44,810 nucleotides of DNA from Streptomyces nanshensis (GTDB taxonomy: Bacteria; Actinomycetota; Actinomycetes; Streptomycetales; Streptomycetaceae), in assembly GCF_001751255.1 (NCBI RefSeq), contig NZ_LJGW01000520.1, positions 1-44,810 of the forward strand, given 5' to 3'. The notes beneath the pieces are model-generated. The model made no database searches. It was not told the origin of the DNA and was given only the letters and a program-made list of their open reading frames with translations. Positions 4,284-40,351 of the stretch are shown piece after piece (positions within the stretch are counted from its first letter, which is position 1; each line of letters opens with the position of its first letter). The translations under genes and the position numbers were made by a program.

Positions 4284-4284
4284 G

Positions 4285-6609: not shown

Positions 6610-6675
6610 CCCCGTACCGGCCTCGACGGCGGAAGCCCGACCACCCGCACCGGACCGTCCGGACCACGTACCCCG

Positions 6676-6712
6676 GCCACGGCCCACGGCCCACGTACCA
6701 CGGCCCACGGCG
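6676..6712. repeat. Short CCACGGCCCACG repeats in the AT-ER/P450 gap
   Basis: The 208-base gap between the AT-ER and P450 genes holds three imperfect copies of a CACGGCCCACG unit in a row. No open frame with coding character crosses it. It could be simple expansion in GC-rich spacer DNA; I see no clear regulatory meaning. Confidence 0.4.
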
Positions 6713-6817
6713 TGAAGTCCGCGTCGGCGCAGGCCGGTTCACGTTCATGACAGCCCCCGCACACGCACCACCACCGCACCGGATACCGCGCCGCACGGCG
6801 CCATGAGAGGACACGCA

Positions 6818-12337: not shown

Positions 12338-12340
12338 GAG
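12296..12340 (-). other. 3' half of tRNA-Arg(CCU): attachment-site scar
   Basis: Read on the minus strand, this is an anticodon-loop CTCCTAA, then AGCGG, GTGTC, the T arm GCAGG-TTCGAAT-CCTGC, acceptor strand CGGGGGC, A and CCA. The expected 5' half (acceptor, D arm, 5' anticodon stem) is absent: the bases before the loop do not pair with AGCGG. A tRNA sequence intact only from the anticodon loop to CCA is the classical product of integrase-mediated insertion into a tRNA gene. The 5' half would lie to the right of the scar in this orientation, so the element should extend rightwards, with the intact tRNA at its far end. Confidence 0.8.
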
Positions 12341-12732
12341 TGGGATCAAATCCATGCTGACGGGTGCCTGTTGATGCTGGGTGATTCTGTCTGTGCAGGT
12401 CAGCTTCATCCAGCATTTCTCCTGATCCGGCTCGTGATGGTCAGTGCTCGACCGTCCGCTCACGCGTCGCTCACGCACAATTCGCCCCCACGCAGGGGCG
12501 ACCACCGAGTACACGATCTTGCTACCCCTCGCAAGAGGCGATGAGGACCGGCCAATCCCGGCATAACTGCTGCGCGCGGGCATGCGGCCCTACGACGGAC
12601 CTGGCACGGCACGCTGAGGCGGCTGGCTCGGAGCCGCCTGTGGCGGCGAAGTGGTGCGAGACGCGCGGCTTTCACGCCGCGTGGCCGCGTCCAACTCCCC
12701 TCCGGCCGAAGGCGGCAGCAGAGAGTCGCTCC
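12341..12732. other. Gap right of the tRNA-Arg scar, no supported gene
   Basis: About 390 bases with no convincing gene. The minus-strand frame here merely reads through the tRNA scar (SQVRILPGAP). Two tandem GCTCACGC units separated by GTC occur at about 12459-12477, the sort of short repeat seen at integrase arm sites, but nothing else supports that. Confidence 0.4.
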
Positions 12733-17676: not shown

Positions 17677-20600
17677 ATGTGGAGTATGACTCATTCCGGC
17701 TCGGATTGTCCCGATCCCTTGAGGCCTTCGCAGGCGACTGGCGACGAGGTTGGCTTGGTGACAGATGCGTGGGCGGCATACTCGGCCGATCCGCAGCTGC
17801 GGCAGCCGCCCGACCCAGGCTCGCCCGGGAATCAACCGCCGGGGGAAGACCTGAACTTGAACATCGGCTGGGAACGCTTCGAGAAGCTGCTGCTTGCGGT
17901 TTCGCGTAGTGTTCTTGGTCTTCGAGGTATCAAGTTCCGTCGCTACGGCATCCAGGGGCAGGAGCAACACGGGATTGACCTCGCCGGACGTGAGGCGGAC
18001 GGCCGCTACACCGTGATCCAATGCAAGGACTATCAACAGTTCACCGCCGGAAACCTACGGGCAGCTGTCGAGAAATTCACCACCGGACTTCGGCCCTTCA
18101 ACGCCTATCGCCTGATCATCGCGACCTCGGCCTCTGCCCAACCCACGCAACTCGCCGATGAGTTGGCCAAGCTTCAGGACGAGAATCCTGATCTTGAACT
18201 GGACCTTTGGGGCTCCGAGAAGATCAACCAGCACCTCCGCTACCACGGCGATGTCGTTGCTCAGTTCTGGACCCGCGAGACAGCCAAGGTGTTCTGTACT
18301 GGGGCACCTCTCCCAGGGGTACCAGCACCGCTTCCGGATCGCCACGAGCAGGCGGAGCGAATCCTCATCGGTCCCCTCAAGACCGCTGATGTGAAGCCGA
18401 TCTTGCGCGAGGCGGACTCCAAGCGGGCAGGGGCTCCGGCAGAGTCCGCCGTTCTGTATGGCGACCTGGCGGTCCGGTTGCAGGAAGCTGGCCATCGCGG
18501 ACATGCGATTGTGCTGCGTCACAGACAACTCGATGCCCTACGGGAGGCCGGGCTCTTCGATGAAGCAGCGGGACTCGCGGCTCTTCTGGCTGTGACTGCG
18601 CTTTACCACGGTGATCGGTACGAACCGCGGAAGCTAGTTCGCCTGCTCGGGGAGTTGGCACGTGATGCCGAGTCGACGGGTACCGAGGAGGCTGCGACAA
18701 CCAGGCGGCATGCCGAACTTGTCCGAGCGGCTGTAGACAACGCTCTGCACCCACTTGGCGCCGGCAAGCCCGACCTCCAGCTGGCGGAGAGCGATGTGGA
18801 CTTGGGGTATTGGCCCCTGCTGGTCCTGATTCTCGCTGAGTATCGGCTGGCCACAGATCCGCACCAGCTTGAGGAACTGGATCACCTCATCAGCGTTGCG
18901 GTCACAGAAGCAGACGAGCGGCCGATCGCAGGCCTCGGAGAAGACCTCGCCATACGCCTGCGACTCGTGCGTGCCGAGTACAACTCCCTCGTAAGAGAGG
19001 AACTCCTGAGAGCAGCGAGGCGACACCTGGTCCATGGCCGACACTCGGCACTGATCAGCGCGCGCGAAGCTCGGCGATGCTGTCTCGAAGATCGGGCCGA
19101 GGAAGCGTTGGAAAGCTGGAGGGATGCCGTTCAAGACGCTATCCACGCCGGATTGGCTGAGGACGCCGCCGACTGGCTCTACGCCATCCGGTCACTGAAT
19201 GTTCAGTACGGCCCCTGGTCCACAGAACTCGACGACGAGCATCACCTTGCCCAGGCTCTCGGCGCAACAGGAACGGGCCGATTGTTGGATCGCATTCGGG
19301 ACCCAAGGGCGCAGGCGATGTCAGCTGTGCTGCGCAAGAAGCCCATCGAAGCCGTGCTGTCAGCTCGACGTTGGCTCACTGACAGTGTCGTGACGGGAAG
19401 CTGGGCCGATGAGAATGAGGCACTCAGCTTCCTTGGAGACCTGTACCGCGACAACAACGAGCCCGCCCTAGCCTCCACGTACTACCAACGCGCGGGGAAC
19501 GCCAAGAGACTCGAAGAACTTTCCACGAGTGTCGGCGACCTCTTGTTGCCGGTGGGGCAACTCAGGGACGAACCATGGTGGGTCCTCCGCGCCCGAGCGA
19601 CGCTCATCTCAGCGCAGGCAGATCTGATCGAAGACCACACGGTGGGCACGCTGCTCAGCGATCTCACAGATTTGGCTGCGCGAGGCAGGGCAGGTGAGCT
19701 CAGTGACTCACCAACACAGGCCCTCACCCTGCAAGCCACAAAGAGCGCCTGCACGCTGGCGTCAAGGGGAACTCCCGAACAGGCTGGCACCCTCCTTGAG
19801 CTGCTGGCCTCCGACGTGGTTCGTGAGCCCAACCACTACCGGCACACCGACGATGAACATGCGGCCGCATGCGTCGAGATCGCCTTTGCACACCCGGACC
19901 TCACCATGGCTGCCCTAACCAGGCTGTTCGACCTCGCAGAGTACGACACCCACAAGGCGCTTGAGCTCCTGGCAAGTCACAGGGTGCTCGAACTACTGGC
20001 GGCACGGGAACATCGCAAAGACCGTCTCGGTAAACCAGGCGACGCCGGAATGCTGACCGACGACGAACAGACCACACTTCGCGCTCGGGCGATCCAATTG
20101 GCGCAGCAGGGAGGTTACTTGAGCGACGTCATGTGCTCCGAAATTCACCCCATCCATCCTTCAGTACGCGACCGCGCGGAACAAGCTCGTGATCGAATCC
20201 TGAACCGACCCGCCCCTAAACCTGGGCACGCTGAACTCGGGACCGCCATGGTTACCGACTCATATCTGGCAAGCAGTCTGGCCGATGAAGACCAGGAGGC
20301 CTGCCTTAGGAAACTTCTGGATGTCGCTGGTGACCCACGTGAGGTGGCCTCGACCCGGCAGGACGCGCTCATCGGGGCCAGCAATCTAGTGCTTGAACAA
20401 TCCCCGGACGTGAAACACGAAACCTTCCAAAAGAGCAGGGCATTTGTGCTCGGCGAACAAGACGGTAGCCATCTTGACGATGAGCTGACCGGCGATTCTC
20501 ATCCACTCAGCTCATTCAGGATCAACGGTGGACCTGCCTCGCTCTGTGGTCACGGACTACGCCTGGCCGCAGCTTCGGCCACGACGATCGAGGAACAAGA

Positions 20601-20967
20601 GTGGGTGCGAGATCAGGCGCTTGGTTTCCTACGCAGCGACGAGCGCTCCATCCTCCAGACCGCCGCCAGGACACTCAACCAACTCCCACGAGAGGTCACC
20701 AGCAACATAGACACCAGTCTCCTGGCCACGCACAACCATGTCGGTGTCCGCCAACTCAGCGCCGTGCTGTGTATGCAGAACCCTGAACGCTGTCTGGATA
20801 CGGCCATGCGCCTCGCCGGCGACAGTGACGGCCGTGTGCGACGCACGCTGGCCGAAGCAGCGGCCTACCTTGCGCCGGACCCTCCCGAATCAGCCACCGC
20901 GATCCTGGAAGCCCTCGCTCAGGACCCACGCCACAGCGTCCGTGTAGCAACGCACCTCCACACCTAG
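17677..20967 (+). CDS. Mrr-like restriction endonuclease-fold domain fused to long TPR/HEAT-like repeat region
   Basis: Up to 1096 aa. The annotated start is the 5'-most ATG; an ATG at 17686 or a GTG at 17758 preceded by GAGG are plausible. Residues 60-200 match the PD-(D/E)XK Mrr-like pattern: WERFEKLLLAVS, YGIQGQEQHGIDL (Asp101) and TVIQCKDY (Gln115-x-Lys117), then a helix AAVEKFTTG. The remaining ~850 residues are almost all helical, with repeating 35-40-residue units (TPR-like around 280-700, HEAT-like near the end, for example DSDGRVRRTLAEAAAYLAP). No P-loop ATPase was found, so this is not an Avs/STAND protein in the strict sense. The layout, a nuclease effector on a repeat scaffold, suggests a phage-defence role with the repeats sensing a target. 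Function is inference. Confidence 0.75.
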   Translation: MWSMTHSGSDCPDPLRPSQATGDEVGLVTDAWAAYSADPQLRQPPDPGSPGNQPPGEDLNLNIGWERFEKLLLAVSRSVLGLRGIKFRRYGIQGQEQHGIDLAGREADGRYTVIQCKDYQQFTAGNLRAAVEKFTTGLRPFNAYRLIIATSASAQPTQLADELAKLQDENPDLELDLWGSEKINQHLRYHGDVVAQFWTRETAKVFCTGAPLPGVPAPLPDRHEQAERILIGPLKTADVKPILREADSKRAGAPAESAVLYGDLAVRLQEAGHRGHAIVLRHRQLDALREAGLFDEAAGLAALLAVTALYHGDRYEPRKLVRLLGELARDAESTGTEEAATTRRHAELVRAAVDNALHPLGAGKPDLQLAESDVDLGYWPLLVLILAEYRLATDPHQLEELDHLISVAVTEADERPIAGLGEDLAIRLRLVRAEYNSLVREELLRAARRHLVHGRHSALISAREARRCCLEDRAEEALESWRDAVQDAIHAGLAEDAADWLYAIRSLNVQYGPWSTELDDEHHLAQALGATGTGRLLDRIRDPRAQAMSAVLRKKPIEAVLSARRWLTDSVVTGSWADENEALSFLGDLYRDNNEPALASTYYQRAGNAKRLEELSTSVGDLLLPVGQLRDEPWWVLRARATLISAQADLIEDHTVGTLLSDLTDLAARGRAGELSDSPTQALTLQATKSACTLASRGTPEQAGTLLELLASDVVREPNHYRHTDDEHAAACVEIAFAHPDLTMAALTRLFDLAEYDTHKALELLASHRVLELLAAREHRKDRLGKPGDAGMLTDDEQTTLRARAIQLAQQGGYLSDVMCSEIHPIHPSVRDRAEQARDRILNRPAPKPGHAELGTAMVTDSYLASSLADEDQEACLRKLLDVAGDPREVASTRQDALIGASNLVLEQSPDVKHETFQKSRAFVLGEQDGSHLDDELTGDSHPLSSFRINGGPASLCGHGLRLAAASATTIEEQEWVRDQALGFLRSDERSILQTAARTLNQLPREVTSNIDTSLLATHNHVGVRQLSAVLCMQNPERCLDTAMRLAGDSDGRVRRTLAEAAAYLAPDPPESATAILEALAQDPRHSVRVATHLHT

Positions 20968-23042: not shown

Positions 23043-26000
23043 TCACCTCGTGAGCGGCAGCCAAGCCACGGCGACGTTGGGTGCTCGTAGGGCGTAGTCC
23101 AACGAGTCAGGAGTGACTGACGAATCCGGCAGCCCCGAGGAGAGCACGATCGGCACCCCGCCTTGCTGCGCGATCTCAACTCGTACCTGCTCGGTCACGG
23201 GAGCTTCCCACTCCTCGATGCCGAGCCTCAAGGTCAACACTCTTGCACTCAGAACTGCGGTCCCCTGAGCGGCGCGGATAGGTTCATCACGAGGCACGAG
23301 GCCAAGGTCTCGGCGATAGTCGGTGACGCCCACCCACCAACCGTCCCGGTCACGATTCGGAGGCACGAAGTCGATGGACTCAAGGTGTGGATTGACCAGG
23401 ATGGCCACGGGAGTTCGATCGTCTATGCGGAGCAGGCTGGTCTTGACCGCGATCGCGCGCCAGCTGGCCAGCGCGCGCGAAGTACCAATGACCGTCATCA
23501 CCCCGTGCCGTCGGTCTCCGGCCGGTCCGTCGGTGTCTACCCAATCGGGATAGCGGCACATGCCCAGATGGTTCAAGGTTGCAGTCGCCTTGCCGGGCTG
23601 CTCGAACACCCGCAGCGCGGGAACTCCATCGTCAAGAGAACCCCCGCAGTACTGGCAGTCAATCGGCCACAACAAGGCCATTGCTTTCTCGAGTTGCCCT
23701 GGAGCTAGGTGACGTTCGGTGCTCCCACTGACTGCGACGGCTGACAGGCCCGGCTGCCCCTCTGCCGCATGGACGATCCGCCAGTCCGGCATCAGCATTG
23801 GGGCGCGCTGCCGAGCTCGGCGTAGCCAGAGCTGAGCGATATCGAGCTGGCCACGCAGAGCCAGGACAGTGCCCAGCGTGATCATGGCATCGGGGTCGCC
23901 GGACTCCGCACGCAATAGCGCGCCGTCGTGGGCCCGCTGGATATACAACGTTGCTTCGTCCGGGAGTTCGCCGAACGCCAACGTCCCAGCATAAGCAAGA
24001 GCCGCAGCAGGCAGTCCGTGATCAGCTGCGCTCACCAGCCACTGGGCGCGGTTGCCCATGAGGTTCATGTTCCGCCGTAGCCAGTCGCCATACCTGACGG
24101 CACATTCGGCGTCTCCCCACTCAGCTCCTCTGAGCCAGAACTCCCGAGCCGCCTCCTCATCCTCATCATCCAGAGCAAGGTCACCGAGCACCCGCAACGC
24201 GCGTGCCTCACCCGCCCGCACCGCCGCCTCAAGCCACCTTTGGGCTCTCTCGCCGTCCTCCGCTTCGGCAAGCAGTGCACCTAGGTGGCACATAGCCGCA
24301 CCATCGCCTCGATTGGCTGCGTCGCGCAGCCACCGCTCCCCCTCCTGCCGGCTCGATACTTCCCCTTGGTCGATGAGCAGGCCCGCGAGCTCTGTCATCG
24401 CAGCGGTATCCCCCGCCTGTGCCGCCGGACGGAGTGCCCTGAGTGCGATATCAGGACGATCTGCCAACTGAGCGTTCCAGGCGAGCAGTGAGAGGTTTGG
24501 CCCATCGACGAGTCGCACGGCCTCCTCCCATGCCGCATCGGCCACTGGAGTCACGCCAGCCGCCCACGAGTCTTCAGCCACCAGATAATCGAAGGGTTGC
24601 CAGCCGCACTCATCGTCTGGCACGAGGAGGCTTGTCGCTCCGAGTAGAACCTCCGAGGCCCAGGCCCACGCCTCCTCCAGGGACTCCGGCCGCAGTTTGG
24701 CGCCGCCCGCACGCTTGAGGTAGGCGTGATGCAGCCGCTCCAATGCTGCGCCCGGCAGTGGTCCCGCAAGGCCAGTTCTGGCCAGGTCGATCCCCGCGGT
24801 CACTAGAGCCGCCCCACGGGGATGCCCTCCATCCACTCCGAGCGACCCAACGGCCGCACGCAGCCGCTCCATCAACTGGGGTCCCCCCGCGAGGTATTCC
24901 GGCAGGCCGTAGTCGTCACCGGCCGCAAGTGCTTCGACCAGACGGGGGTCACCGGAGCCAGCAGCGGCCGCACGTTCCCCATCGCTCCAGATCCGGTCGA
25001 CGGGGACGAGCGCAGCGCGCCGAAGCACAGCCTCGGCAAAAGTCGGCCCGTCGAGCGCCTCGCCTGCGCCGCGCCGGGCGCTTCGGTTCACGTACCGGTC
25101 ATACAGTTGAGAACGCAAGGTGGCGAGGACAACCGTCCCGCTCCTCTGCAGCCCGGTCAGCAGTTCACCGGTAAGCCCTTTGGGATGCAGATGGCGCTCT
25201 AGATCATCCAGCCAGACCACCCGGTACCTGCCTGGTTCCCGACAGTCGTCTGTAAGCCCACTGAGATCGGTCGCTGGATCAGGGCAGCAGACCTGCCACT
25301 CACCGAGCGTCCGCCGCATCGCCTCAAATGCGGAACGCGTTTTTCCTACCCCCGAATTTCCCGTCATCAAAACGAAGCCGCCCTGGCGCGCCGCCGCCCG
25401 CAGGCGTCCGTCGAGCCTTTCGTCAAGATCCCGCGAAACGTACGGCACAGTTTCAGGCAGGCCATCGACCTCACGCACAGGATGGGTACCGTAACCAACC
25501 GCCTCCGCCCCAGCGACCGCCTCCCACGCAAAGCGCCGTTTGCGTCGGATCCGCTCCAGGGCTGGCCGCACTCCGGTGTGCCGCTCCACGAGTTCGAGAA
25601 ATTCCTCGTTGGCGAGGAGCGTCCTTGCCGGAACCGCCTCCAGGCGACCGTGCGCCCAGCCATTCGGATCATCGACTGCCACCCCGACCAGGTAGTCCCC
25701 CAGGAAAGCGGCTGCGCCAGACATTCCCCGCCATGGCGAGCCGTCTCGCGATGTCTGCGGGGCCGAGTGCGCACTGTCGATCACATAGCGCCCGCGCAGT
25801 ACTGACGAGCCGGGCTTGAGTGTGCCGACCAGCTGCTCAGAATCAGGCCGACGGCCCGTCCGCTGGGCGTGGGGAAACCCGATGACCTCGCAACCGGACC
25901 AGACCGACGAACCTTCCAGCTCACCCCAGCGCACCGGCGGGGTCGCCTCCGGCTCAATTAGGTCGGCATCCGCCAGCAGCAGCGCCGCGTCGCACGCCTC

Positions 26001-26183
26001 GCCCACACCCCGCCAGAGAACTTTGCAGTCCTGGAGCCCGGAGCCACCCGGGACACCAGCCCGTGCGTCACTGGCACTGACCACATGACGGGCAGTCAGG
26101 ATCAGCCGTGCGCTCAGTAGCCAGCCGCTGCCCTGCGTACTTCCCTCGACAATCACGATGCGCCACCGCATAGCCTCCCCCAT
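23043..26183 (-). CDS. Trypsin-like protease - STAND P-loop NTPase - Sel1/TPR repeat protein
   Basis: A 1046-aa protein. Residues 1-200 are a chymotrypsin-fold protease with the triad His33 (LTARHVV), Asp65 (ACDAALLL) and Ser155 (GSPWRGMSGAAAF); GMSGA replaces the usual GDSGG. A STAND-type NTPase follows, with Walker A GNSGVGKT at 275-282 and Walker B RVVWLDDLE around 321-329. Residues about 555-800 show Sel1/TPR-like repeats (GDTAAMTELAGLLIDQGEV, GDGAAMCHLGALLAEAEDGE and similar). The C-terminal ~200 residues are an unrecognised domain with CQYCGG and a third Cys in MCRYPDW. The ATG has a GGGGGG site upstream and lies 20 bases after a Trypco2-like gene. Known analogues are conflict systems in which a repeat-bearing STAND NTPase senses a trigger and activates its protease. 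The domain calls are strong; the biological role is inferred. Confidence 0.9.
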   Translation of the reverse strand: MGEAMRWRIVIVEGSTQGSGWLLSARLILTARHVVSASDARAGVPGGSGLQDCKVLWRGVGEACDAALLLADADLIEPEATPPVRWGELEGSSVWSGCEVIGFPHAQRTGRRPDSEQLVGTLKPGSSVLRGRYVIDSAHSAPQTSRDGSPWRGMSGAAAFLGDYLVGVAVDDPNGWAHGRLEAVPARTLLANEEFLELVERHTGVRPALERIRRKRRFAWEAVAGAEAVGYGTHPVREVDGLPETVPYVSRDLDERLDGRLRAAARQGGFVLMTGNSGVGKTRSAFEAMRRTLGEWQVCCPDPATDLSGLTDDCREPGRYRVVWLDDLERHLHPKGLTGELLTGLQRSGTVVLATLRSQLYDRYVNRSARRGAGEALDGPTFAEAVLRRAALVPVDRIWSDGERAAAAGSGDPRLVEALAAGDDYGLPEYLAGGPQLMERLRAAVGSLGVDGGHPRGAALVTAGIDLARTGLAGPLPGAALERLHHAYLKRAGGAKLRPESLEEAWAWASEVLLGATSLLVPDDECGWQPFDYLVAEDSWAAGVTPVADAAWEEAVRLVDGPNLSLLAWNAQLADRPDIALRALRPAAQAGDTAAMTELAGLLIDQGEVSSRQEGERWLRDAANRGDGAAMCHLGALLAEAEDGERAQRWLEAAVRAGEARALRVLGDLALDDEDEEAAREFWLRGAEWGDAECAVRYGDWLRRNMNLMGNRAQWLVSAADHGLPAAALAYAGTLAFGELPDEATLYIQRAHDGALLRAESGDPDAMITLGTVLALRGQLDIAQLWLRRARQRAPMLMPDWRIVHAAEGQPGLSAVAVSGSTERHLAPGQLEKAMALLWPIDCQYCGGSLDDGVPALRVFEQPGKATATLNHLGMCRYPDWVDTDGPAGDRRHGVMTVIGTSRALASWRAIAVKTSLLRIDDRTPVAILVNPHLESIDFVPPNRDRDGWWVGVTDYRRDLGLVPRDEPIRAAQGTAVLSARVLTLRLGIEEWEAPVTEQVRVEIAQQGGVPIVLSSGLPDSSVTPDSLDYALRAPNVAVAWLPLTR

Positions 26184-26203
26184 GTCATAGCCCCCCGGCG
26201 ACG

Positions 26204-26542
26204 TCAGTCCCGCATGTTCCCGAAGTCGTCCAGTTCAGCTGGGTCCGGGTTACCGATCAGCCAACTCGTGCTGTCCGATGAGCGCCTGGGTTCCAAGGTC
26301 AGCGCAATCCGGTGGGCCTTGTGCTGCGCGGCAGCGGCACTGACGTCCCCGGACACAACCCAGGCTTTGAAACCCGCCTTAGCCTGAGCGTCCCTGCGGA
26401 GCTCTACGGAGAACTCAAGGGTGATATCCCGGACATCGAACCGCAGTTCCTCGCCATCGCCCGCGACGGCGGCGTCGAGGAGCTGCTGCCTCACGGCCGC
26501 CACGGCCTGTGTGAGTTCGATCTCATGAAACGCGTCCGTCAC
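26204..26542 (-). CDS. Trypco2-like small protein (trypsin co-occurring), copy 1
   Basis: A GTG at 26542 follows a GGGGGG stretch and gives 112 aa. The pattern is that of Trypco2, a family named for its genomic association with trypsin-like proteases: an N-terminal helix (ELTQAVAAVRQQLLDA), then strands (EELRFDVRDITLEFSVELRR), then KAGFKAWVVSGDVSA and HRIALTLEP. It is immediately upstream of the protease-STAND gene, so the two form one transcription unit. It is expected to act as an adaptor or substrate of the protease module. The last ~25 residues extend past the core and differ from copy 2. Confidence 0.82.
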   Translation of the reverse strand: MTDAFHEIELTQAVAAVRQQLLDAAVAGDGEELRFDVRDITLEFSVELRRDAQAKAGFKAWVVSGDVSAAAAQHKAHRIALTLEPRRSSDSTSWLIGNPDPAELDDFGNMRD

Positions 26543-26645
26543 GTCGCCCCCCCGCAACCGCAGACTGGAACTAGCAAGGATAGGAAGGCCGCCACGCGCC
26601 CGGCATGGGGGTCGCGCTCACTGTAGTTGTCCCCGCCGGGTTGCG

Positions 26646-29126
26646 TCAGGTCCCGGGCCACCAGACAAGCAGGGCGCAGGTCATCAGGGCGATGGGGACA
26701 GCGGTGATGAGGAAATACTTCTGGAGTTCGTGAGCCTCCAGGTAGTCATGCAGAACTTCCCATTGCCGGCGTACCACTCTTCCCCCGCCCGATGCTCTCG
26801 GCACCGGTGGTTCATTGGTCAACCGTCGTGCCGTGGCCCTCCCGTGGTGGCTGGAGACAACGGATGCCGGCAGCGTCATGTCATCCGGGCCAGAGGCGTG
26901 CGATGCGGTAGCGGTCGGCTCTGACGGAAGGACAGCCGATGGGAGGGGTGCCTCCCCGTCTTCGTGTGGTGGGGGTTCCCCGGGGCTGTCGGCCGGCTGT
27001 GGCTTGAGTTCACCGGCTACCTGCACCAAGTCGCCTAGCAGTGCTGAATCTTCGCGGAGCTCGACCTCCGCGTTCTCGATGGTGGCGAGCCACACTTCCC
27101 GTTCTGCAGCAGGAAGTTGCTCGGCGACTACGGCGGCGGTCTCCTTCAGCATGCCTGGGTGGGAGGCGATCACACCTGCAGCACTGTCCGCCAGAAGGTC
27201 TTGGGTGGGGGCAGCGCGGGTGAGGATCGTCAGGCAGCGTCGCCGCTGGCTGCCTGTGAGCGCGGGGGAGGTGAGAACCTGCTCAAGGAACTCTTCACCA
27301 CTGGAGGTATTCAACTCGTCGATGAGCGCTGCATTTAGGGCGTCGGGGCCAAGACCGCCGAAGTAACCCTCGTCAAGGGCCGGGTAGAGGTCTCGGAGTA
27401 AGCGCCGCAGCGTCAGGATGGTGTCGGGTGGCAGCGGCGGAGGGACCTCGAACTCGCGGTAGTAGAAAAGCCAGGCGGCGGTAATGACCCCCTTGGCGTC
27501 GTCCTTGTGGGCGGCACCAGCCATGCTCTGCACAGCAACGAGGGCACGTAGCAGATCCGGGTCGACGTCCAGACGCTCGGCGTCGACACCGCGCTGGCAG
27601 TACTTCATCTCATGCTCCAGCAGCACTGCGGTGGCCGCTGGCTTCTCGTCGAGCGCCTGGCGGGAGTGGAGCAGCACGTCGGCGAGTGCGTCCATGTGGA
27701 CGGTTAGGGGATGATCAGGGTAGGGGAGCTCCGACAACCATTCCTGGTCGATCTCGCCGTCTTCCTCCAGGCGCTCGGCCGCCTCGTCAGGGTTCCAGTC
27801 ATCAGGTACGCCAGCCCGGTGGAGAGCGGCTATCTGCCGATTGAAGGCGAGTGCGGCGACCTCCTGTACCTGGGCCCGGGTCAGCTGCCGGTAGAGCGCC
27901 TCGGGGACAAGCTGAATTATCTCCCCTCTGGTCGCGGCAGCGTGCCGGATGCGCAGCCGTTCCCACCACTCACGGGTGGAGCGTGCCAGCAGCAGGAGGC
28001 GCACCGGGCGGCCGGGCGGCCGGTGTGCCGCCAGCGCATTGAGCACCTGTTCGACCTGCTGGGTGCGTGACTCGGCGTAATCGATGATGATCAGTACGGG
28101 CCGGACGAGGTGACAGAAGTCGGCATACGCCTCGGAACGCTGCTCGGGGACGTCGGAGAGGAATCCGGCGCACCAGGGTATGTCCGGGTTCTGCGGGAGG
28201 TGCTCGGCGTCGGGGCGTCGTTCAGAAAGGCGGCGTGCCAGCTCCACGGCCAGCCGGGTCTTTCCGATTCCGCCGGGGCCCTGCACGACAGCGGAGTCCA
28301 CGGTCCGCCCGCTGGCGCACCAATCGAGCAACGTGGTCAACTCGGCGTCGAGACCAGTGAAGTCCACGATCTCCGAGCGAGGTGAGAGCAGGTAGGACGC
28401 TGCGGCCGCGGGCTGCGGCGGACAGTCGAAGAGCCGTGCGAGATCGGCAGCCTCCAGCCGTGGCCGCGCCTGTGAAGCCTGCTCCACCAGGTCGCAGAAT
28501 CCCCGGTCATCCAGCAGCCGCCGCACCGGAAGGGCTTCCAGACGGCCACTGTTCCACCCTGCAGGCTCATCTGTGATCACGCCCAGCAGCAGGTCCTGAC
28601 AGAACACCCCCGCTCCAGACATTCCGCTCCACGGGGAACCGGTTGTTCCGCTGGAGGACTGTGGGGGTTCCCCAGCTACCTGCAAACTGTAGGTGCGAGA
28701 GGCGTTGTCAATGACGTTGATGCGGCCGACCGCCACATGGGGCGCACGGTATTCCCAACGATCATCGGCAGCGACATCAGATCCTCGCCGTACTGCTGCG
28801 CGAGGAAGTCCCACGGCAGTGCATTCGGGGGCCGAAGTAGGCCTGGTGCAGGTGAGTTCGCCCCACCGCACTGGCGCAAACGCCTCTTTCAGATCTTGAG
28901 GCCGGCACCGCAGCAGCGCTGCATCCCCACGGCGCCACGCAAGATCTGCGACCACCTGGGGGCCCTGCACTCCGTCGTTGAGTAATCGGACGAGGCGAGG
29001 CGCATCTCCAAAGCCAACTGCCACTTCCACCAGGTGGTAGGCCGTCAGGATCAGGCCAGGTGCGACCACAGTGCCCGCGCCTACGCGTCCCGCGTACTCC
29101 ACTGAGGCAGCACGATTCCATCCCAT
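26646..29126 (-). CDS. Trypsin-like protease - STAND P-loop NTPase with C-terminal membrane anchor
   Basis: An ATG at 29126, 13 bases after the upstream gene's stop and preceded by AGGGGG, gives 826 aa; a longer frame would overlap that gene. The protease triad is His31 (LTAYHLV), Asp68 (RGDAALL) and Ser170 (GSPWSGMSGAGVF). The NTPase has Walker A GPGGIGKT at 283-290 and Walker B VLIIIDYAE around 344-351. The region after about residue 450 is helical with no clear Sel1 units. A Pro/Ser-rich low-complexity stretch (about 690-770) leads to one hydrophobic helix near the extreme C-terminus (YFLITAVPIALMTCALLVWW, about 804-823). It is paralogous to the 1046-aa protein but tail-anchored, probably facing the cytosol, so protease activity may act at or near the membrane. 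Confidence 0.9.
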   Translation of the reverse strand: MGWNRAASVEYAGRVGAGTVVAPGLILTAYHLVEVAVGFGDAPRLVRLLNDGVQGPQVVADLAWRRGDAALLRCRPQDLKEAFAPVRWGELTCTRPTSAPECTAVGLPRAAVRRGSDVAADDRWEYRAPHVAVGRINVIDNASRTYSLQVAGEPPQSSSGTTGSPWSGMSGAGVFCQDLLLGVITDEPAGWNSGRLEALPVRRLLDDRGFCDLVEQASQARPRLEAADLARLFDCPPQPAAAASYLLSPRSEIVDFTGLDAELTTLLDWCASGRTVDSAVVQGPGGIGKTRLAVELARRLSERRPDAEHLPQNPDIPWCAGFLSDVPEQRSEAYADFCHLVRPVLIIIDYAESRTQQVEQVLNALAAHRPPGRPVRLLLLARSTREWWERLRIRHAAATRGEIIQLVPEALYRQLTRAQVQEVAALAFNRQIAALHRAGVPDDWNPDEAAERLEEDGEIDQEWLSELPYPDHPLTVHMDALADVLLHSRQALDEKPAATAVLLEHEMKYCQRGVDAERLDVDPDLLRALVAVQSMAGAAHKDDAKGVITAAWLFYYREFEVPPPLPPDTILTLRRLLRDLYPALDEGYFGGLGPDALNAALIDELNTSSGEEFLEQVLTSPALTGSQRRRCLTILTRAAPTQDLLADSAAGVIASHPGMLKETAAVVAEQLPAAEREVWLATIENAEVELREDSALLGDLVQVAGELKPQPADSPGEPPPHEDGEAPLPSAVLPSEPTATASHASGPDDMTLPASVVSSHHGRATARRLTNEPPVPRASGGGRVVRRQWEVLHDYLEAHELQKYFLITAVPIALMTCALLVWWPGT

Positions 29127-29139
29127 CCCAGCCCCCTGC

Positions 29140-29448
29140 CTAGGCGAACGGGCGCCCGCCCGGGGTCTCGCCCAAGTGGCCCTGATCACTGATCGGCCTC
29201 AGACTGGCTCCCTCCAACTCCAAACTGACGGTCATGCGGTGCGTCTGTGCAGTGGAGCGCTCTCCGCGCGCTTCACCAGAGACGACGAACGCCTTCATGC
29301 TGCCGCCGGCCGAACTTGTCTTGCGCAGCTCGATTCCCAGGTCCAAGACGACATCCTTCACCCTGAACCGAAGATCCGAGCCTGCACCGTCTCGCTGCGC
29401 GGCCTCCAGGCCCTCCCGTACGGCTTTGATTGCTTCGGACAGCTCCAT
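29140..29448 (-). CDS. Trypco2-like small protein, copy 2
   Basis: An ATG at 29448 gives 102 aa beginning MELSEAIKAVREGLEAAQRD, the usual Trypco2 opening; a TTG three codons earlier is possible. The strands follow as GSDLRFRVKDVVLDLGIELR, MKAFVVSGEARGE and HRMTVSLELEG, matching copy 1 in order and spacing at clearly lower identity. It is the first gene of a four-gene run (Trypco2, protease-STAND, Trypco2, protease-STAND) all on the minus strand. The spacer from here to 29643 (about 195 bases) should hold the promoter. Confidence 0.85.
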   Translation of the reverse strand: MELSEAIKAVREGLEAAQRDGAGSDLRFRVKDVVLDLGIELRKTSSAGGSMKAFVVSGEARGERSTAQTHRMTVSLELEGASLRPISDQGHLGETPGGRPFA

Positions 29449-29643: not shown

Positions 29644-29991
29644 TCAGACGGTGGCCCGTTGGGCTGACGCAGTCAAAGCCTGCAACTGTGCGTGCATGCC
29701 GGTGGCGAGATCCACTGTGGGCTGCCATTCGAGGGTCGACTGAGCTCGGCGAGAGTCGGCACGGGTGGTCAGAACATCGCCGTTGCGTGCGGTGGCCGCC
29801 TGAAGCTGGATCTCGCGACCCGTAAGGCTGTTGGCGATGTTGATGACGTCGATCAGTGACGCGTTGGTGCCACCGCCCACGTTCACGATGCTGGTGTCGG
29901 GCGGGGCACCTGCGGCGGCGATGGTGGCTGCCACTGCGTGATCGATGTAGGTGAAGTCCCGGCGTTGGTGACCGTCACCGAAGAGGCGCAA
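29644..29991 (-). pseudogene. C-terminal remnant of an NAD-dependent sugar epimerase/dehydratase
   Basis: The frame reads FGDGHQRRDFTYIDHAVAAT, then NVGGGTNASLIDVI and DSRRAQSTLEWQPTVDL. This is the sugar-substrate half of GalE/WbiI-like extended SDRs (GxGxQxRDFxYVDD...NVGGG...L...EW.P). The Rossmann domain and catalytic YxxxK that should precede it are missing; the sequence beyond 30000 is unrelated. About 115 of some 310 residues remain, so it is inactive. Confidence 0.8.
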
Positions 29992-30089: not shown

Positions 30090-30831
30090 TCAGTGGGGGA
30101 TGCCTTCGATGATGTCGCGGGCGTCCTGGCGGAGGAGTTCGGCGCACACTCGGCTGCCGAGTGTGGCGGGGTCGTTGGAGGTCTCGTCCCAGATGTGGGC
30201 GTGGGCGAACTTCGAGCCGTCGCGGGAGAAGACCATGCCGCGCAGGGAGAGTTGGCCGTCCGGTTCGGTGGTGCAGTATCCGGCGATCGGTGAGTTGCAG
30301 TGGCCTCGCAGGCCGTGGAGCATCACACGCTCGGCGGTGGCCTCGGTCTGGGTCTTGGGGTGGTTGAGGCGTTCCAGCAGTGCGGCCACCGGGGCGTCGT
30401 CGCGGCGGCACTCCAGGGCGAGGACGCCGGCGCCGACGGCGGGCAGCATCTCGTGCACGGTGAACTCGGCAACGATGCGGTGGGTCAGGCCGAGGCGTTC
30501 CAGGCCGGCGCGGGGCAGCATCCCGGCGAAGATCAAACCCTGCGACATGGGCTGGTCGCCGGGGACGTCCTTGAGGCAGTGAATCGCCGCGTCGATGTCG
30601 CCGCGCTGCAACTGCTGGTCGATGGCTTTGACGAACGGTCCCTTCCCGCCCAACTGGGCAAGGTCGCCTTGCCCAGTTGTCGGCTTCGGTGACGGTGGGC
30701 ACGGCCTCGACCTTGAGGGACGGCTCCAGCTCGTGCAGCAGGGCGGTGACGTGCTCGGTCTGCGCGAGTGCCATGGGCGAGTTGCGGGTGCCGATGCGAA
30801 GGGTCCGGTCGGCGAAGTCGGTCAGGCTCAC
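30090..30831 (-). pseudogene. hemC: hemC-like hydroxymethylbilane synthase, frameshifted and internally deleted
   Basis: A GTG at 30831 with GGAGAGG upstream opens LRIGTRNSPMALAQTEHV, a typical HemC start. After EADNW the frame is lost: an extra G in the C-run at 30672-30674 shifts it. The following text in the right frame is QGDLAQLGGKGPFVKAIDQQ...AIHCLKDVPGD. A second lesion follows: FAGMLPR joins directly to AGLERLGLTHRI, skipping about 75 residues that normally carry the VRRKAQL and RGNVNTRL substrate-binding segments. The cofactor Cys is still present (GHCNSPIAGY). Neither lesion is compatible with a working porphobilinogen deaminase. A functional hemC is presumably elsewhere. Confidence 0.82.
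30651..30679. repeat. Perfect 13-bp palindrome inside the hemC remnant
   Basis: CAACTGGGCAAGG (30651-30663), TCG, CCTTGCCCAGTTG (30667-30679). The extra base that breaks the hemC frame lies in one arm and is what makes the palindrome perfect. Confidence 0.85.
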
Positions 30832-32976: not shown

Positions 32977-34470
32977 TCAGAACCGTTGCTGATCGTGAGG
33001 ATTCCGGAAGCAGTGCATGAGCCTCAGCGTGAGTTCCTCGGCGATGTTCGGCACCGCACCTTCGATGGTTGTGGCGTCCCAAGTCTCGTCGGGCAGGAGC
33101 TGCACCGGACCACCCCGTCCGCCGCGTGCCAGCGGGAAGCTGTTGGAGGTCTTGGCAGAGTCCAAGCTCATCACGGTCAGGATCTCGGCGGGGTCGATGG
33201 CCAGCGCGGGAGCGAAGCGGGTTTGCGGGACGTCGTGGAGACGTAGCAGCAGCCAAAGCAAGTCAGCGATGCGTGCCTGGGCGAACTCTGGATCGAGAAC
33301 CGGCATGAACATGTGACTGGAACGGGGTAGCGACTCCCAACAGCTCCGTTGGCCGGACCGCTTAATCGCCAGACCGATACTGCGACCTTGCCGCGCGTCG
33401 CGGACGTACGCAGCAGTGAAGTCGTCACCGATCACGCTCGATACTTCTTCGGTGGCTGTGAAGAACGACGCTGACCGCCCCAGGGACACGAGGTCCTCCT
33501 TGAGCTGATTCATCTGGCGCATGGACAGCCGGGGGCTTTCCTCCGGCAGCAGATGAAGCTCAATCGTCGCACTTTCGCTTGACCACGGGGGTAGCAGCTC
33601 CCTGCGCCAAGCAACTGGCAACGGCTCGTTGAGCTGCTGACCGGCGACAGCACTGGCCATGACAGAGGTGCCGACGGTCTCGGGGCGTGCGGACGGTTGC
33701 TCAGTCTTCACTGTTCCGGGGAAGGTCAGCGATTTGATGACGGCGATGGTGAGGGCTGCGGCGTTGTCAGCGGCAAGCAGCTGGAAGCCGCCGGTGTCTG
33801 TCTGCTGCTTACTGCCGTCAGCTCGGTCGCTGATGCCACGGATGACCAAGGCCGAAACCTGCTCAGCCATGGAAGCGGCGCCTGAGAAGCCTGCTCCTTC
33901 CGTTTCGATGGCGGCAACACCATTGTAGTGCTCGTCCAGAAGGTCCTGCAGCGTGGACGCCTGGGCGTTCACAACCACCTCGCCGGCCGCGATCGGTTTG
34001 AAGTGGACTTCGGGGATCTCACGGCCTGTGGGAAATAGAGACTCCGCCCACTGCGGATCCAGCACGGCGAAACGGGCTGTCTGCTCAAGCCGGTGTGATG
34101 CTGACCAAGTCACGGGCCGGGTCTTGAATGTCTGTTCCTGCTTTCCCCCGTGGTAGGAGAAAACTTGCGTGGCAACGACGACGTCGCCGAGAGCTACGTC
34201 GCGTTTCATGCCTCCAGCAATGCCCGTGAAGAAGACAGCGTCCGGGCCGATCATTTGGATGGCGCGCTCAGTAAGGACGGCTGCGCCCTGGTTCCCTTGA
34301 CCGACCTGAGCGAGGTACACCTCCCAGTTGGTTCCCGGGATTCGGCCGACCTCGAAAATTGTCCCTGCCGCGTGGTCGACCCGTTGTGGGTCCGCGACCA
34401 GCGCCCGTACCGCTCGATACTCCAGTGGTAGCGCGGCGAAGATGATGATCTTTCCGCTGGACGGACGCAT
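32977..34470 (-). CDS. PNP/MTAN-family nucleosidase with a C-terminal unknown domain
   Basis: A 497-aa protein; ATG preceded by GAGGTG. Residues 1-250 have the nucleoside phosphorylase/nucleosidase fold: IIIFAALPLEYRAV (general-acid-like Glu17), FFTGIAGGM (82-88), AAIETEGAGFSGAA (Glu189/Glu191, ribose-binding) and RGISDRADG (Asp215, catalytic Asp of MTAN-type enzymes). Residues 265-497 form a second domain with strands and helices that I do not recognise (SATIELHLLPEE... ARIADLLWLLLRLHD...). Stand-alone metabolic MTANs are about 230 aa, so the doubling in length and the accessory position argue for a conflict-system role; related PNP-fold effectors are known to deplete nucleotides such as ATP during phage infection. 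It is divergent from a TM protein, which may be its partner. Confidence 0.85.
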   Translation of the reverse strand: MRPSSGKIIIFAALPLEYRAVRALVADPQRVDHAAGTIFEVGRIPGTNWEVYLAQVGQGNQGAAVLTERAIQMIGPDAVFFTGIAGGMKRDVALGDVVVATQVFSYHGGKQEQTFKTRPVTWSASHRLEQTARFAVLDPQWAESLFPTGREIPEVHFKPIAAGEVVVNAQASTLQDLLDEHYNGVAAIETEGAGFSGAASMAEQVSALVIRGISDRADGSKQQTDTGGFQLLAADNAAALTIAVIKSLTFPGTVKTEQPSARPETVGTSVMASAVAGQQLNEPLPVAWRRELLPPWSSESATIELHLLPEESPRLSMRQMNQLKEDLVSLGRSASFFTATEEVSSVIGDDFTAAYVRDARQGRSIGLAIKRSGQRSCWESLPRSSHMFMPVLDPEFAQARIADLLWLLLRLHDVPQTRFAPALAIDPAEILTVMSLDSAKTSNSFPLARGGRGGPVQLLPDETWDATTIEGAVPNIAEELTLRLMHCFRNPHDQQRF

Positions 34471-38272: not shown

Positions 38273-40351
38273 CTACCAGTCGATTGTCAGGCGGGTGTCG
38301 GGTCGCGCGATCTGGGCGCCGGCTTCGATCTGGTCGTCGTCGGTGGCGGCGGGGTAGGCGGTAATGAGGGGTTGGGCGGGGCGTTCCTGGCTCCAGCGGT
38401 GTAGGAGGTCACTGACCTGTGCGGTGAGCTTGTTGGCGTCGGGGCCGTGGGTGGTGATGCCCAGTTCGTCGGCGTCGTCGCTGACGGGACGGGCGGTGAG
38501 GTAGGCGAAGGTGCCGCCGTCGTACAGGGCGGCGCCGGACCAGCGGAGGGCGGGGGCGGCCAGGCCGAGGTCGCGGGCGGCTGGGCCGATGGACAGCTTG
38601 CCGAAGCTCAGGTCGGACTCGATGGTGGCGAGCCAGAGGTCGAGGTGGGCTGCGGGCTCGTCATGGCGCACGTGGATGCCGGTCCATTGCTGGTGGGCGG
38701 GGTAGGTGAGGACGTCTGCCAGTGCGGCTTGGTCCGGCTGGTCGTCGGCGTCGACCTTGAGGATTGCGTTCTCGGCGAGACGGACATGGATCTCGCCCAT
38801 CTCGGCCGCACCGCGCAGGGGGACGAACCCGCACACCGCTGCGTTGGTGCTGACCATGCGGTCGTCTTCGGTGCGGGTGAAGGCGATGGACCGGGTCAGG
38901 CCGCTGCCGTGCAGTCGCAGGGGGACGACGATCCGTCCGCCGGACGCGAGTTGGGACCACCAGGCGGCCGGGATGTCCCAGGCCCCGGCGGTGACGATGA
39001 TCCGGTCGTACGGTGCGCGGTCGGGGTCTCCGAGGGCGCCGTCCCGGCACAGCACGGTGACGCGCTCGTACCCGGCTTCGGTCAGGTGGGTGCGGGCGCC
39101 TTCGGTGAGGTCGTCGTCGAGTTCGATAGTGACCACTCGCCCGCTCTCGCCGACGAGTTCGGCCAGCAGGGCGGCGTTGATGCCGGTGGCTGCGCCGATC
39201 TCCAAGACCCCTTGTCCGGGTGCGGCTTCGAGCTGTTCGAGCATCGTGGCGACGATGTTCGGGCTGGAGGCGGAGGAGATCGCGGTGCTGTCGGCCGCGC
39301 GCTTGGTGACTACCTGCTTGGGTGCGTAGGCCGTAGCGAGGTCCACCTCGGGGAGGAAGACGTGCCTCGGGATGGTGCGGAAGGCGTTCTTCACGGCTTC
39401 GGTGCGGAAGGTGCCGAGGCTGTCGATCTTGGCCACGAGGGCGTCGCGAAGGGCGCGGGGATCAGCGGTCGGCGTAGAGGTGGTGTCCATGGTCACTGGC
39501 CTGACTGTAGTGGGCTGAGCGGGGGTGCCCTCGGAGCTTCGCGGGGCCGTGCTGTGGCTGGGCTGGCGGTGAAAGATGATGCGGCTCGCTGCGCGGGCGA
39601 TTGCGGCCTGGTGCTCCGCGCTGATGCCGAGGCGGTTGAAGGCGAACAGCAGATGGTCGGTGAGGACGGCGCGTATGCCGCGGGTCAGGGATCCGCCGCC
39701 GGCGAGTTCGGCGAGGGCTTTTCCGGCGTCCTCGTAGGCCGTGGGCCATGCGGGAGTCTGGCTGAGGGGGCTGCCAGGGATATCGTCGGCTGCGGTGATG
39801 AGCATCTGAACGCCGGCGAGGGGCGGTGCGGAAGGCTCCGCGGCGTCAGCGGCGCGGTGTTCGGCGACGGCCGTCCAGATGTCGCCTTGCTCGTAGAAGT
39901 CCTGGCCGGCCGCCTGCATCATGCGGGTGGCCAGCCGCAGGCCGATCTCGCGCCGGTGATCCGGCCCGCCGCGGGCGCGGGCGAGGTGCGTGAGGATGTG
40001 GCGGCTGTCGGCGTGGAAGAGGCGGTGGGCGATCTCCATGGCGGGTTCGCCGCCGAAGCGGTAGGTCTCCTGCTCGTACACCACGTCGCAGGCGTGAGCG
40101 CGCAGTTCGGGAGCTTCGGTCATCTGCGTGAAGAGGGCGGCGGTGTCCTCGTCGCGTCCCGGGGCGGGCTGGAGGCGCAGGCGCCAGGTTTCCCGCTTGC
40201 GGATGAACCACCACGAGGAGATCGCTCCATCGTCCTCGGCTTGGGCCAGCAGCGGCAGATGATTGCGGACGGCCAAGTCCTCGGCGGCCTGCCAGGTGTC
40301 GCTGGACAGATTGATCTGCCGCCAGGCGGGGATGGGTTCGTCGCGTGTCAC
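38273..40351 (-). CDS. FxLD-type lanthipeptide methyltransferase (PCMT-like) fused to an N-terminal SpaB_C/thiopeptide-type domain
   Basis: A 692-aa protein, GTG start with GAGGGAAA upstream. Residues 1-270 resemble the stand-alone 'thiopeptide-type bacteriocin biosynthesis' domain, homologous to the LanB elimination domain (AWRQINL, WWFIRKRETWRLRL, YEQETYRFGG, HRLFHADSRHIL). Residues 300-692 are a protein L-isoaspartyl methyltransferase-like enzyme: VFLPEVDLATAYA, SSASSPNIVATMLEQL and the SAM motif GVLEIGAATGINAAL (381-395). This is the architecture of the 'methyltransferase, FxLD system' group; PCMT homologues in lanthipeptide clusters convert a precursor Asp to isoaspartate. It is the last gene of the lan operon, 16 bases after LanC. 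The second SpaB_C domain besides the one in LanB is unusual. Confidence 0.85.
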   Translation of the reverse strand: MTRDEPIPAWRQINLSSDTWQAAEDLAVRNHLPLLAQAEDDGAISSWWFIRKRETWRLRLQPAPGRDEDTAALFTQMTEAPELRAHACDVVYEQETYRFGGEPAMEIAHRLFHADSRHILTHLARARGGPDHRREIGLRLATRMMQAAGQDFYEQGDIWTAVAEHRAADAAEPSAPPLAGVQMLITAADDIPGSPLSQTPAWPTAYEDAGKALAELAGGGSLTRGIRAVLTDHLLFAFNRLGISAEHQAAIARAASRIIFHRQPSHSTAPRSSEGTPAQPTTVRPVTMDTTSTPTADPRALRDALVAKIDSLGTFRTEAVKNAFRTIPRHVFLPEVDLATAYAPKQVVTKRAADSTAISSASSPNIVATMLEQLEAAPGQGVLEIGAATGINAALLAELVGESGRVVTIELDDDLTEGARTHLTEAGYERVTVLCRDGALGDPDRAPYDRIIVTAGAWDIPAAWWSQLASGGRIVVPLRLHGSGLTRSIAFTRTEDDRMVSTNAAVCGFVPLRGAAEMGEIHVRLAENAILKVDADDQPDQAALADVLTYPAHQQWTGIHVRHDEPAAHLDLWLATIESDLSFGKLSIGPAARDLGLAAPALRWSGAALYDGGTFAYLTARPVSDDADELGITTHGPDANKLTAQVSDLLHRWSQERPAQPLITAYPAATDDDQIEAGAQIARPDTRLTIDW

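What the first reader, a model, noticed from the sequence alone, without database searches (positions are those of the whole stretch)
23043..29448. Tandem Trypco2 / trypsin-like protease-STAND NTPase modules
Seen: four same-strand genes in the order Trypco2-like, protease-NTPase, Trypco2-like, protease-NTPase, with gaps of 13, about 100 and 20 bases. Both large proteins keep His-Asp-Ser triads (GSPW.GMSGA) and Walker A/B motifs. Known: Trypco2 is a family named for co-occurrence with trypsin-like proteases, and protease-STAND proteins are implicated in bacterial conflict. Inferred: a duplicated, diverged surveillance system in which each NTPase gates a protease and each small protein is its adaptor or substrate. 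Two paralogous copies side by side suggest either two triggers or one pathway with two outputs.
Basis: partly seen in the sequence, partly recalled or inferred. Interest (0 to 1): 0.85.

Follow-up and report, generated by a model that had tools for sequence, protein, structure and literature searches.

The report
Two neighbouring protease-switch gene pairs
A Streptomyces genome carries, side by side, two distantly related copies of a common two-gene unit in which a small helper protein is made just before a protease fused to an ATP-driven switch; it is probably an immune-type alarm, and our comparisons suggest the helper belongs to the protease part rather than to the switch.

Summary
On the minus strand lie Trypco2-B, protease-NTPase-B, Trypco2-A and protease-NTPase-A, with gaps of 13, 103 and 20-32 bases. 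Both small proteins match Pfam Trypco2 (E 6e-25, 6e-27). Both large ones keep His-Asp-Ser and Walker A/B; B also ends in a hydrophobic, probably membrane, helix. Trypco2 beside a trypsin-like protease is published (Kaur 2020) and routinely annotated.

Same-genus survey: 99 of 150 genomes have Trypco2. Of 142 Trypco2 genes examined, 104 sit directly before a same-strand protease gene (90 of these with a Walker A motif), 3 directly after one, 21 divergent from one. In two loci where the divergent genes were scanned, trypsin goes with a PknG-like kinase and no STAND match.

"Duplicated" is not supported: A and B fall in separate clades, the same in Trypco2 and protease trees, and are 39/36/21% identical (Trypco2/protease/NTPase). 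Among 150 listed matches the next same-contig pair is 138 kb apart.

Trypco2 follows the protease even where the NTPase differs, though one comparison is neutral, and is usually more conserved than the protease. I favour a protease-domain regulatory subunit made first, in a two-gene sensor-effector module; cleaved substrate is the main rival. No function was shown.

The parts
29140..29448 (-). Trypco2-B (102 aa; TTG start at 29457 also possible)
   Evidence: Pfam PF19631 E 6.3e-25; 66-72% identical to Trypco2 of six plasmid relatives
26646..29126 (-). protease-NTPase-B (826 aa), module B
   Evidence: Trypsin_2 over cut-off; AAA_16 and nSTAND5 below cut-off; triad H31/D68/S170, Walker A at aa 283
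28482..29126 (-). trypsin-like domain of B, about aa 1-215
27777..28349 (-). P-loop NTPase core of B, about aa 260-450
   Evidence: Walker A GPGGIGKT, Walker B-like LIIIDYAE; sub-threshold AAA_16/nSTAND5
26658..26714 (-). C-terminal hydrophobic (probably transmembrane) helix of B (aa 805-823)
   Evidence: hydropathy 2.13 over 19 residues; the six plasmid relatives have such a segment (1.88-2.92) within their last 20-131 residues; hydropathy only, no dedicated predictor
26204..26542 (-). Trypco2-A (112 aa, GTG start)
   Evidence: Pfam PF19631 E 6e-27; clade with the S. griseoruber, S. albus and S. monomycini copies
23043..26171 (-). protease-NTPase-A (1042 aa; 1046 if ATG at 26183), module A
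   Evidence: Trypsin over cut-off; AAA_16 and nSTAND3 below cut-off; triad H29/D61/S151, Walker A aa 271, Walker B aa 318
25572..26171 (-). trypsin-like domain of A, about aa 1-200
24972..25433 (-). P-loop NTPase core of A, about aa 247-400
   Evidence: Walker motifs; AF2 block pLDDT 75-77 at aa 251-270 and 69-84 at aa 291-350, but 44-60 at the P-loop itself, aa 271-290; Foldseek second hit is a STAND-TPR protein (6mfv, E 8e-7, TM-score only 0.16)
23805..24461 (-). Sel1/TPR-like solenoid of A, about aa 571-789
   Evidence: phmmer to 4bwr, 6ork, 6ur7; AF2 pLDDT 78-91 for aa 571-680, lower after
23046..23684 (-). C-terminal domain of A with C839/C842/H868/C872, possible zinc site
   Evidence: motif C-x2-C-x25-H-x3-C; all four residues kept in A and its three aligned relatives; metal binding inferred

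Best explanation
These are two separate, independently inherited two-gene modules that lie next to each other in a lower-GC accessory stretch. In each, the large protein is sensor, switch and effector in one chain: a C-terminal part (Sel1/TPR solenoid plus Cys-rich domain in A; probably membrane-anchored tail in B) senses a trigger, the STAND-type NTPase changes state and probably oligomerises, and the N-terminal trypsin-like domain is brought to activity. Trypco2, made first from the upstream gene, binds the protease domain as its dedicated regulatory subunit, most likely holding it off or keeping it folded until the switch fires. The released protease cuts host or phage proteins, giving growth arrest or cell death. 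Shown: gene pairing, intact catalytic and nucleotide motifs, congruent clades, evolutionary linkage of Trypco2 with the protease domain. Inferred: binding, inhibition, oligomerisation, substrate, defence role.
For: Of 142 Trypco2 genes, 104 have the protease gene directly downstream on the same strand (domain start -15 to +268 nt from the Trypco2 stop), 3 directly upstream, 21 divergent with the domains 164-221 bp apart (profile E up to 0.01 in the weakest). 90 of the 104 have a Walker A motif after the protease. Catalytic H, D and S are invariant in 41 of 41 representative downstream proteins and Walker A GK is at least 90% conserved; their NTPase matches at E up to 0.001 overlap and differ (nSTAND5 18, NACHT 16, AAA_16 16, NB-ARC 1, VMAP-C 1 of 41). 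In divergent loci, L090 has a 440-aa trypsin followed by a PknG-like kinase and a vWA gene, and L046 a trypsin fused to a PknG-like kinase, with no STAND match. Among locus pairs whose NTPases differ (identity up to 0.26), Trypco2 similarity still follows protease similarity (rho 0.31, 0 of 500 permutations); among pairs whose proteases differ (up to 0.32) it does not follow the NTPase (rho 0.06, reached by 33 of 500). Trypco2 identity exceeds protease identity in 90% of the 126 pairs with protease identity over 0.5 (pairs not independent). GC falls to 62-67% over about 12-38 kb, between flanks of 68-75%.
Against: Overall Trypco2 correlates equally with protease and NTPase (r 0.80 each; partial 0.47 each). 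The 24 pairs with similar NTPase but diverged protease (21 of them involve L077 or L053) have the same mean Trypco2 identity, 0.46, as the 77 pairs of the opposite kind. The five clearest NTPase swaps come from about two independent events. Only two divergent loci had their trypsin gene scanned; others may differ (L047 has a strong, STAND-type-like profile score). No complex could be modelled; the Trypco2 model is poor (pLDDT 57) and matches no solved fold. The protease domain of A was not modelled confidently. Twelve of 142 Trypco2 genes had no protease by my profile and two only a distant one; L046 of the twelve has one by Pfam. Nothing read here reports a phenotype for Trypco2.
Confidence: 0.46

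Rival explanations
1. Trypco2 is the substrate: a small pro-effector cleaved by the activated protease, as the upstream nuclease is in Hachiman and AVAST nuclease-protease pairs.
For: Same layout: partner gene immediately upstream of a protease fused to varied sensors; PMC12799240 (abstract and first part of Results seen) reports cleavage of the upstream partner and similar gene trees, as found here. Variable C-terminal tails with repeated GFG-type units in a few Trypco2.
Against: Trypco2 is about 105 aa with no recognisable catalytic residues (invariant columns in 24 sequences are L, R, A, F, L) and no PADLOC, NCBIfam, PHROGs or significant PDB match; the folded domain, not a linker, is what is conserved.
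Confidence: 0.25
2. Trypco2 is an adaptor or oligomerisation scaffold linking the protease to a recruited target, like the effector-associated domains of related conflict systems.
For: Called an adapter in PMC10907252 (passages); high conservation relative to partners; occurs with several different partner types.
Against: No Trypco2 with a C-terminal extension longer than 71 aa was seen, so no fused homotypic partner there; N-terminal fusions were not tested systematically. Not excluded.
Confidence: 0.15
3. A housekeeping or developmental proteolysis switch rather than defence.
For: 22 of 104 loci share a downstream opposite-strand neighbour that in the one member scanned is ClpC-like (AAA_2, ClpB_D2-small, UVR), which suggests one lineage at a stable chromosomal position; Trypco2 is in 99 of 150 same-genus genomes.
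Against: The window modules are in none of the 14 neighbour clusters printed; B relatives were found on plasmids; sensors diverge strongly.
Confidence: 0.2
4. The two modules form one pathway with two triggers or outputs.
For: Same strand, 103 nt apart, so possibly co-transcribed; no terminator-like or sigma-70-like site was found between them (that scan suits this genus poorly). Clustering exists elsewhere: two pairs with Trypco2 starts 5.7 kb apart on an S. aurantiacus plasmid and two Trypco2 genes 12 kb apart on pSGE.
Against: The nearest other same-contig pair among 150 listed matches is 138 kb apart (many assemblies are fragmented). Eight close relatives of A or B (L184, L185, L188, L191-L195) show one Trypco2 each in the stretches fetched.
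Confidence: 0.07

Closest known systems
Trypco2-trypsin association in VMAP (MoxR-vWA) ternary conflict systems, Kaur et al. 2020 (PMC7159879, passages seen)
   Same: Trypco2 gene beside a trypsin-like domain fused to a larger regulatory protein
   Different: No VMAP-C in either large protein and no MoxR or vWA among 24 window ORFs scanned; the regulator is a STAND-type NTPase; two genes only
Nuclease-protease pairs of Hachiman, AVAST, Lamassu and DRT (PMC12799240, abstract and first part of Results seen)
   Same: Upstream partner gene plus trypsin-like domain N-terminal in varied sensors; partner and protease trees similar
   Different: Partner there is an MBL-type pro-nuclease (HamM 42 kDa); here a 105-aa domain with no enzyme signature found
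CARD-NLR systems incl. Caulobacter LypABC (PMC13236601, passages seen)
   Same: Trypsin-like domain plus ATPase domain in one protein; catalytic serine needed for lysis
   Different: CARD-like N-terminal domain and further NLR-like and peptidase-endonuclease proteins; the window proteins have no room for a CARD before the protease, and no such partners were identified beside them (one ORF about 2 kb away, 17677-20967, has a weak Mrr match)
nSTAND1/EAD8 with trypsin partner, DGR-diversified systems (PMC10907252, passages seen)
   Same: STAND switch with trypsin-like effector; Trypco2 named as adapter at another locus
   Different: Protease on a separate protein, C-type lectin sensors and diversity-generating retroelement

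Membership tests
Trypco2 (PF19631) | match over curated cut-off across the model | tested here: met
   94.1 and 87.7 bits vs 24.2, positions 1-78 and 1-77
Trypco2 (PF19631) | neighbouring trypsin-like domain | tested here: met
   both in the window; in the survey 128 of 142 (104 downstream, 3 upstream, 21 divergent)
Trypsin-like serine peptidase | His-Asp-Ser triad and family match | tested here: met
   B over Trypsin_2 cut-off, A over Trypsin cut-off only; triads
STAND NTPase | P-loop NTPase with Walker A/B followed by helical and repeat sensor | tested here: inconclusive
   Walker motifs present; Pfam STAND/AAA matches below cut-off; model of A ranks a STAND-TPR structure second but with low TM-score; B not modelled
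VMAP ternary system | VMAP-C plus MoxR and vWA genes | tested here: not met
   no such match in 24 window ORFs scanned with Pfam; not every window ORF was scanned
AVAST type 1 / nuclease-protease pair | upstream MBL-fold pro-nuclease; Avs1b or LmuA well matched | tested here: not met
   upstream gene is Trypco2; A: Avs1b E 0.017-0.025 and LmuA 2.8e-4, B: LmuA 2.1e-3, all confined to the protease region
CARD-NLR system | CARD-like domain before the protease | tested here: not met
   the Pfam protease match starts within about 20 residues of the N-terminus in A and B; no CARD profile search was made
Antiphage defence system | protection in a phage challenge | not testable with these tools
   needs an experiment

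The most novel reading that the evidence does not exclude
Trypco2 plus its trypsin-like domain is a transferable plug-in: a slowly evolving regulatory subunit, made first, that controls one protease type while that protease is attached to unrelated switches (STAND, NACHT, VMAP, PknG-like kinases), a second solution beside the nuclease-protease pairs, with the protease itself rather than a released nuclease as the killing enzyme.
Probability: 0.33. Interest if true: 0.65.

Novelty: new variant of a known kind. Interest (0 to 1): 0.45.

Why it matters
Trypco2 was named in 2020, and I found no experimental study of it in the library searched; yet it is in 99 of 150 sampled genomes of this genus. 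If it is a protease-domain subunit, a minimal two-gene system can be tested directly, and the same test would apply to VMAP and kinase-linked versions. The window gives a natural pair of distantly related modules, one probably soluble and one probably membrane-anchored, for testing specificity of helper and protease.

Tried and rejected
Recent tandem duplication: rejected by identities and trees, noting that the protease of A is the third closest to that of B among the 87 loci. VMAP and AVAST1 membership: features not met. A conserved C-terminal Trypco2 motif (hydrophobic-G-D/N): enriched over shuffles in the 104 operonic copies (0.47 vs mean 0.16) but present in under half, and not clearly in the other 38 (0.21 vs 0.12), so not claimed as universal. 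Fold of Trypco2: low-confidence model, no match. Complex modelling: A, B and the three relatives allowed for modelling are not in one frame with their Trypco2, so no natural read-through fusion existed; I did not build an artificial one. Viral contigs searched with Trypco2-A, Trypco2-B and the A-type protease alignment, and the phage records searched with Trypco2-A, gave no relative. tRNA-Pyl called by ARAGORN at 12296 has no Rfam support. Relatives of whole protein B in the genus could not be searched (server); plasmid relatives were used instead. Literature: only two papers of the library hold 'Trypco2', the same two hold 'Trypco'; related searches are. No bioRxiv preprints and few subscription papers are in it, and I did not see the supplements of Kaur 2020, so a prior description of this exact form is not excluded.

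Full report
What is there. On the minus strand, in transcription order, lie Trypco2-B (29448-29140), protease-NTPase-B (29126-26646), Trypco2-A (26542-26204) and protease-NTPase-A (26171-23043). Pfam confirms both small proteins as Trypco2 with scores over three times the cut-off; each large protein passes a curated trypsin cut-off in one Pfam family, and the NTPase parts match AAA_16, nSTAND3 or nSTAND5 only below cut-off. Catalytic triads and Walker A/B motifs are present in both. A continues into Sel1/TPR repeats (phmmer to solved structures) and ends in a domain with a C-x2-C-x25-H-x3-C element kept in its three aligned relatives. B ends in a hydrophobic helix, and its six plasmid relatives have a comparable segment in their last 20-131 residues.

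Modelling. The AF2 model of A is weak overall (pLDDT 48; four sequences). Parts of the NTPase core are better (69-84) but the P-loop itself is not (44-60 at aa 271-290); the Sel1 region reaches 78-91; the protease part is not modelled. Foldseek ranks human SAMD9 first and a STAND-TPR protein (6mfv) second, with TPR and Sel1 structures further down, all at low TM-scores for the query. Trypco2-A is predicted as one helix and four or five strands at low confidence (pLDDT 57) with no solved match.

How common. Trypco2 is found in 99 of 150 same-genus genomes. In a spread sample of 149 genomes of the phylum only 3 were positive, all same-genus; of 14 control genomes, Bacteroides ihuae and Methanosarcina acetivorans ring, so the family is not confined to the genus. 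Named relatives of A come from Streptomyces griseoruber, S. albus and S. monomycini, so the genus is taken to be Streptomyces. A search with whole protein A matched 71 of 295 same-genus genomes, but nearly full length in only 3 (G015, G125, and G070 in two overlapping frames; 40-60% identity); other matches cover only the protease part or only the NTPase-Sel1 part, as expected of a modular protein. On plasmids, Trypco2-A has matches in 22 of 72,556 records (Streptomyces 17, Kitasatospora 3, Nocardia 1, Rhodococcus 1) and protein B in 33; of the 20 best Trypco2-A records listed, 18 are annotated 'trypco2 family protein'. No match in phage records.

Neighbourhood survey. From the 150 rows listed I fetched 140 regions; 2 rows are the window, 8 listed rows and all unlisted rows were left out. 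With the window they hold 142 Trypco2 genes (two further profile hits were second pieces in one ORF): 104 have a protease directly downstream on the same strand, 3 directly upstream (one is the third copy of this genome, L043), 21 a divergent protease with the domains 164-221 bp apart, 2 a distant one, 12 none by my profile. Of the 104, 90 show a Walker A motif after the protease; several of the rest have short or interrupted frames. L046, one of the 12, has a divergent trypsin fused to a PknG-like kinase by Pfam. In the divergent locus L090 the genes are a 440-aa trypsin, a PknG-like kinase and a vWA protein; in L133 a vWA and a PP2C gene were scanned. The other divergent loci were not scanned with Pfam. 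Of the downstream proteins, 41 representatives (chosen at 45% protease identity, at least 650 aa) all keep H, D and S, with Walker A GK in at least 90%; their NTPase matches include nSTAND5, NACHT, AAA_16, NB-ARC and one VMAP-C.

A third gene? I clustered 580 ORFs within 3.5 kb of the 104 pairs (simple ORF calling, blastp). Families do recur: the largest (22 loci) is a downstream, opposite-strand gene, ClpC-like in the one member scanned, and most of the next ones follow the same loci, as for one lineage at one chromosomal position. A transporter-like protein (10 loci) and a response-regulator-like protein (11 loci; both names by eye) reach other loci in mixed or distant positions. The printed clusters with a gene touching the pair on the same strand have at most 4 loci, apart from the transporter-like one (101 bp upstream in L091; 3 of 10 on the same strand). 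So I see no general third component, at the sensitivity of this test. The window modules are in none of the 14 clusters printed.

Are A and B duplicates? Not recent ones. They are 39% (Trypco2), 36% (protease) and 21% (NTPase, background level) identical, and 38, 17 and 18 other loci are closer to A; seen from B, the protease of A is third closest among those loci. In trees of 93 sequences that add named relatives, A groups with L091, L158, L184 and L185 (support 0.94 Trypco2, 0.87 protease) and B with the plasmid set and L119 (0.86 and 0.93) in both trees. Among 150 listed matches the next closest same-contig pair is 138 kb apart. An S. aurantiacus plasmid has two pairs with starts 5.7 kb apart and plasmid pSGE two Trypco2 genes 12 kb apart, so clustering occurs but is rare in what I saw. 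The modules sit in a stretch of 62-67% GC between flanks of 68-75%.

Whom does Trypco2 belong to? Distances of Trypco2, protease and NTPase correlate strongly (r 0.80 T-P, 0.80 T-N, 0.78 P-N; 87 of the 104 loci plus filters; permutation maxima for the plain Trypco2 correlations up to 0.14). Two of the 87 (L123, L170) had a wrong Trypco2 fragment and were dropped (85 loci). Where the NTPases differ, Trypco2 still follows the protease (rho 0.31, 0 of 500; five pairs, from about two independent swaps, keep Trypco2 at 0.60-0.64 and protease at 0.49-0.55 with NTPase at 0.14-0.18). Where proteases differ it does not follow the NTPase (rho 0.06, 33 of 500 permutations reach it). Against this, the 24 pairs with similar NTPase and dissimilar protease, 21 of them involving L077 or L053, average the same Trypco2 identity (0.46) as the 77 opposite pairs. 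With the kinase-linked contexts of L090 and L046, I read Trypco2 as a partner of the protease domain, moderately supported. Trypco2 is also usually the more conserved part: above the protease in 90% of 126 close pairs, which are not independent, and 66-72% versus 37-55% among B relatives.

Mechanism and literature. Kaur 2020 (passages) named Trypco1/2 as neighbours of trypsin-like domains in VMAP systems; PMC10907252 (passages) calls Trypco2 an adapter; PMC12799240 (abstract and first part of Results) shows a protease fused to a sensor cutting an upstream pro-nuclease; PMC13236601 (passages) shows that a CARD-trypsin-ATPase protein needs its catalytic serine for lysis. By analogy the window proteins are sensor-switch-effectors, and since I found no general third gene, the protease is either the effector or cuts Trypco2. 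I prefer a regulatory subunit made first, because the partner is a small folded domain without a detected enzyme signature and usually more conserved than the protease. This remains inference.

Verdict. A real, intact pair of modules of a known association, in a form (two genes, STAND-type switch, no MoxR/vWA/VMAP among the 24 window ORFs scanned) that I did not find described in the passages seen. Interesting as a test bed rather than surprising.

Noticed in passing
window 17677-20967 (+): 1096-aa protein with weak Mrr-type nuclease and HEAT matches and a PADLOC match to Aga_TIR-PNTD1-PNTD2 (E 5e-6); possibly another defence protein.
   Followed up: partly
window 32977-34470 (-): 497-aa protein with a nucleoside-phosphorylase domain at the N-terminus; PADLOC matches to PDC-M60C and a PN-superfamily effector.
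   Followed up: partly
window 38273-40351 (-): ORF matching PADLOC mad2 (E 4e-19); it overlaps a long ORF on the other strand, so which one is coding was not settled.
   Followed up: no
window 29644-29991 and 30090-30653 (-): Fragments resembling a sugar epimerase C-terminus and part of porphobilinogen deaminase, apparently gene remnants just upstream of module B.
   Followed up: no
window 12296-12367 (-): ARAGORN calls a tRNA-Pyl (CTA), but Rfam finds nothing there at its gathering thresholds; probably spurious.
   Followed up: partly
L090, L133, L046: Trypco2 near a trypsin / PknG-like kinase / vWA / PP2C cluster in part of the genus: a context for Trypco2 without a STAND match.
   Followed up: partly
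L083, L103, L104, L125: Some Trypco2 C-terminal tails carry repeated short units ending in GFG or GLG.
   Followed up: no
window 1-8000: High-GC polyketide synthase genes with acyltransferase and P450 flank the lower-GC stretch.
   Followed up: no
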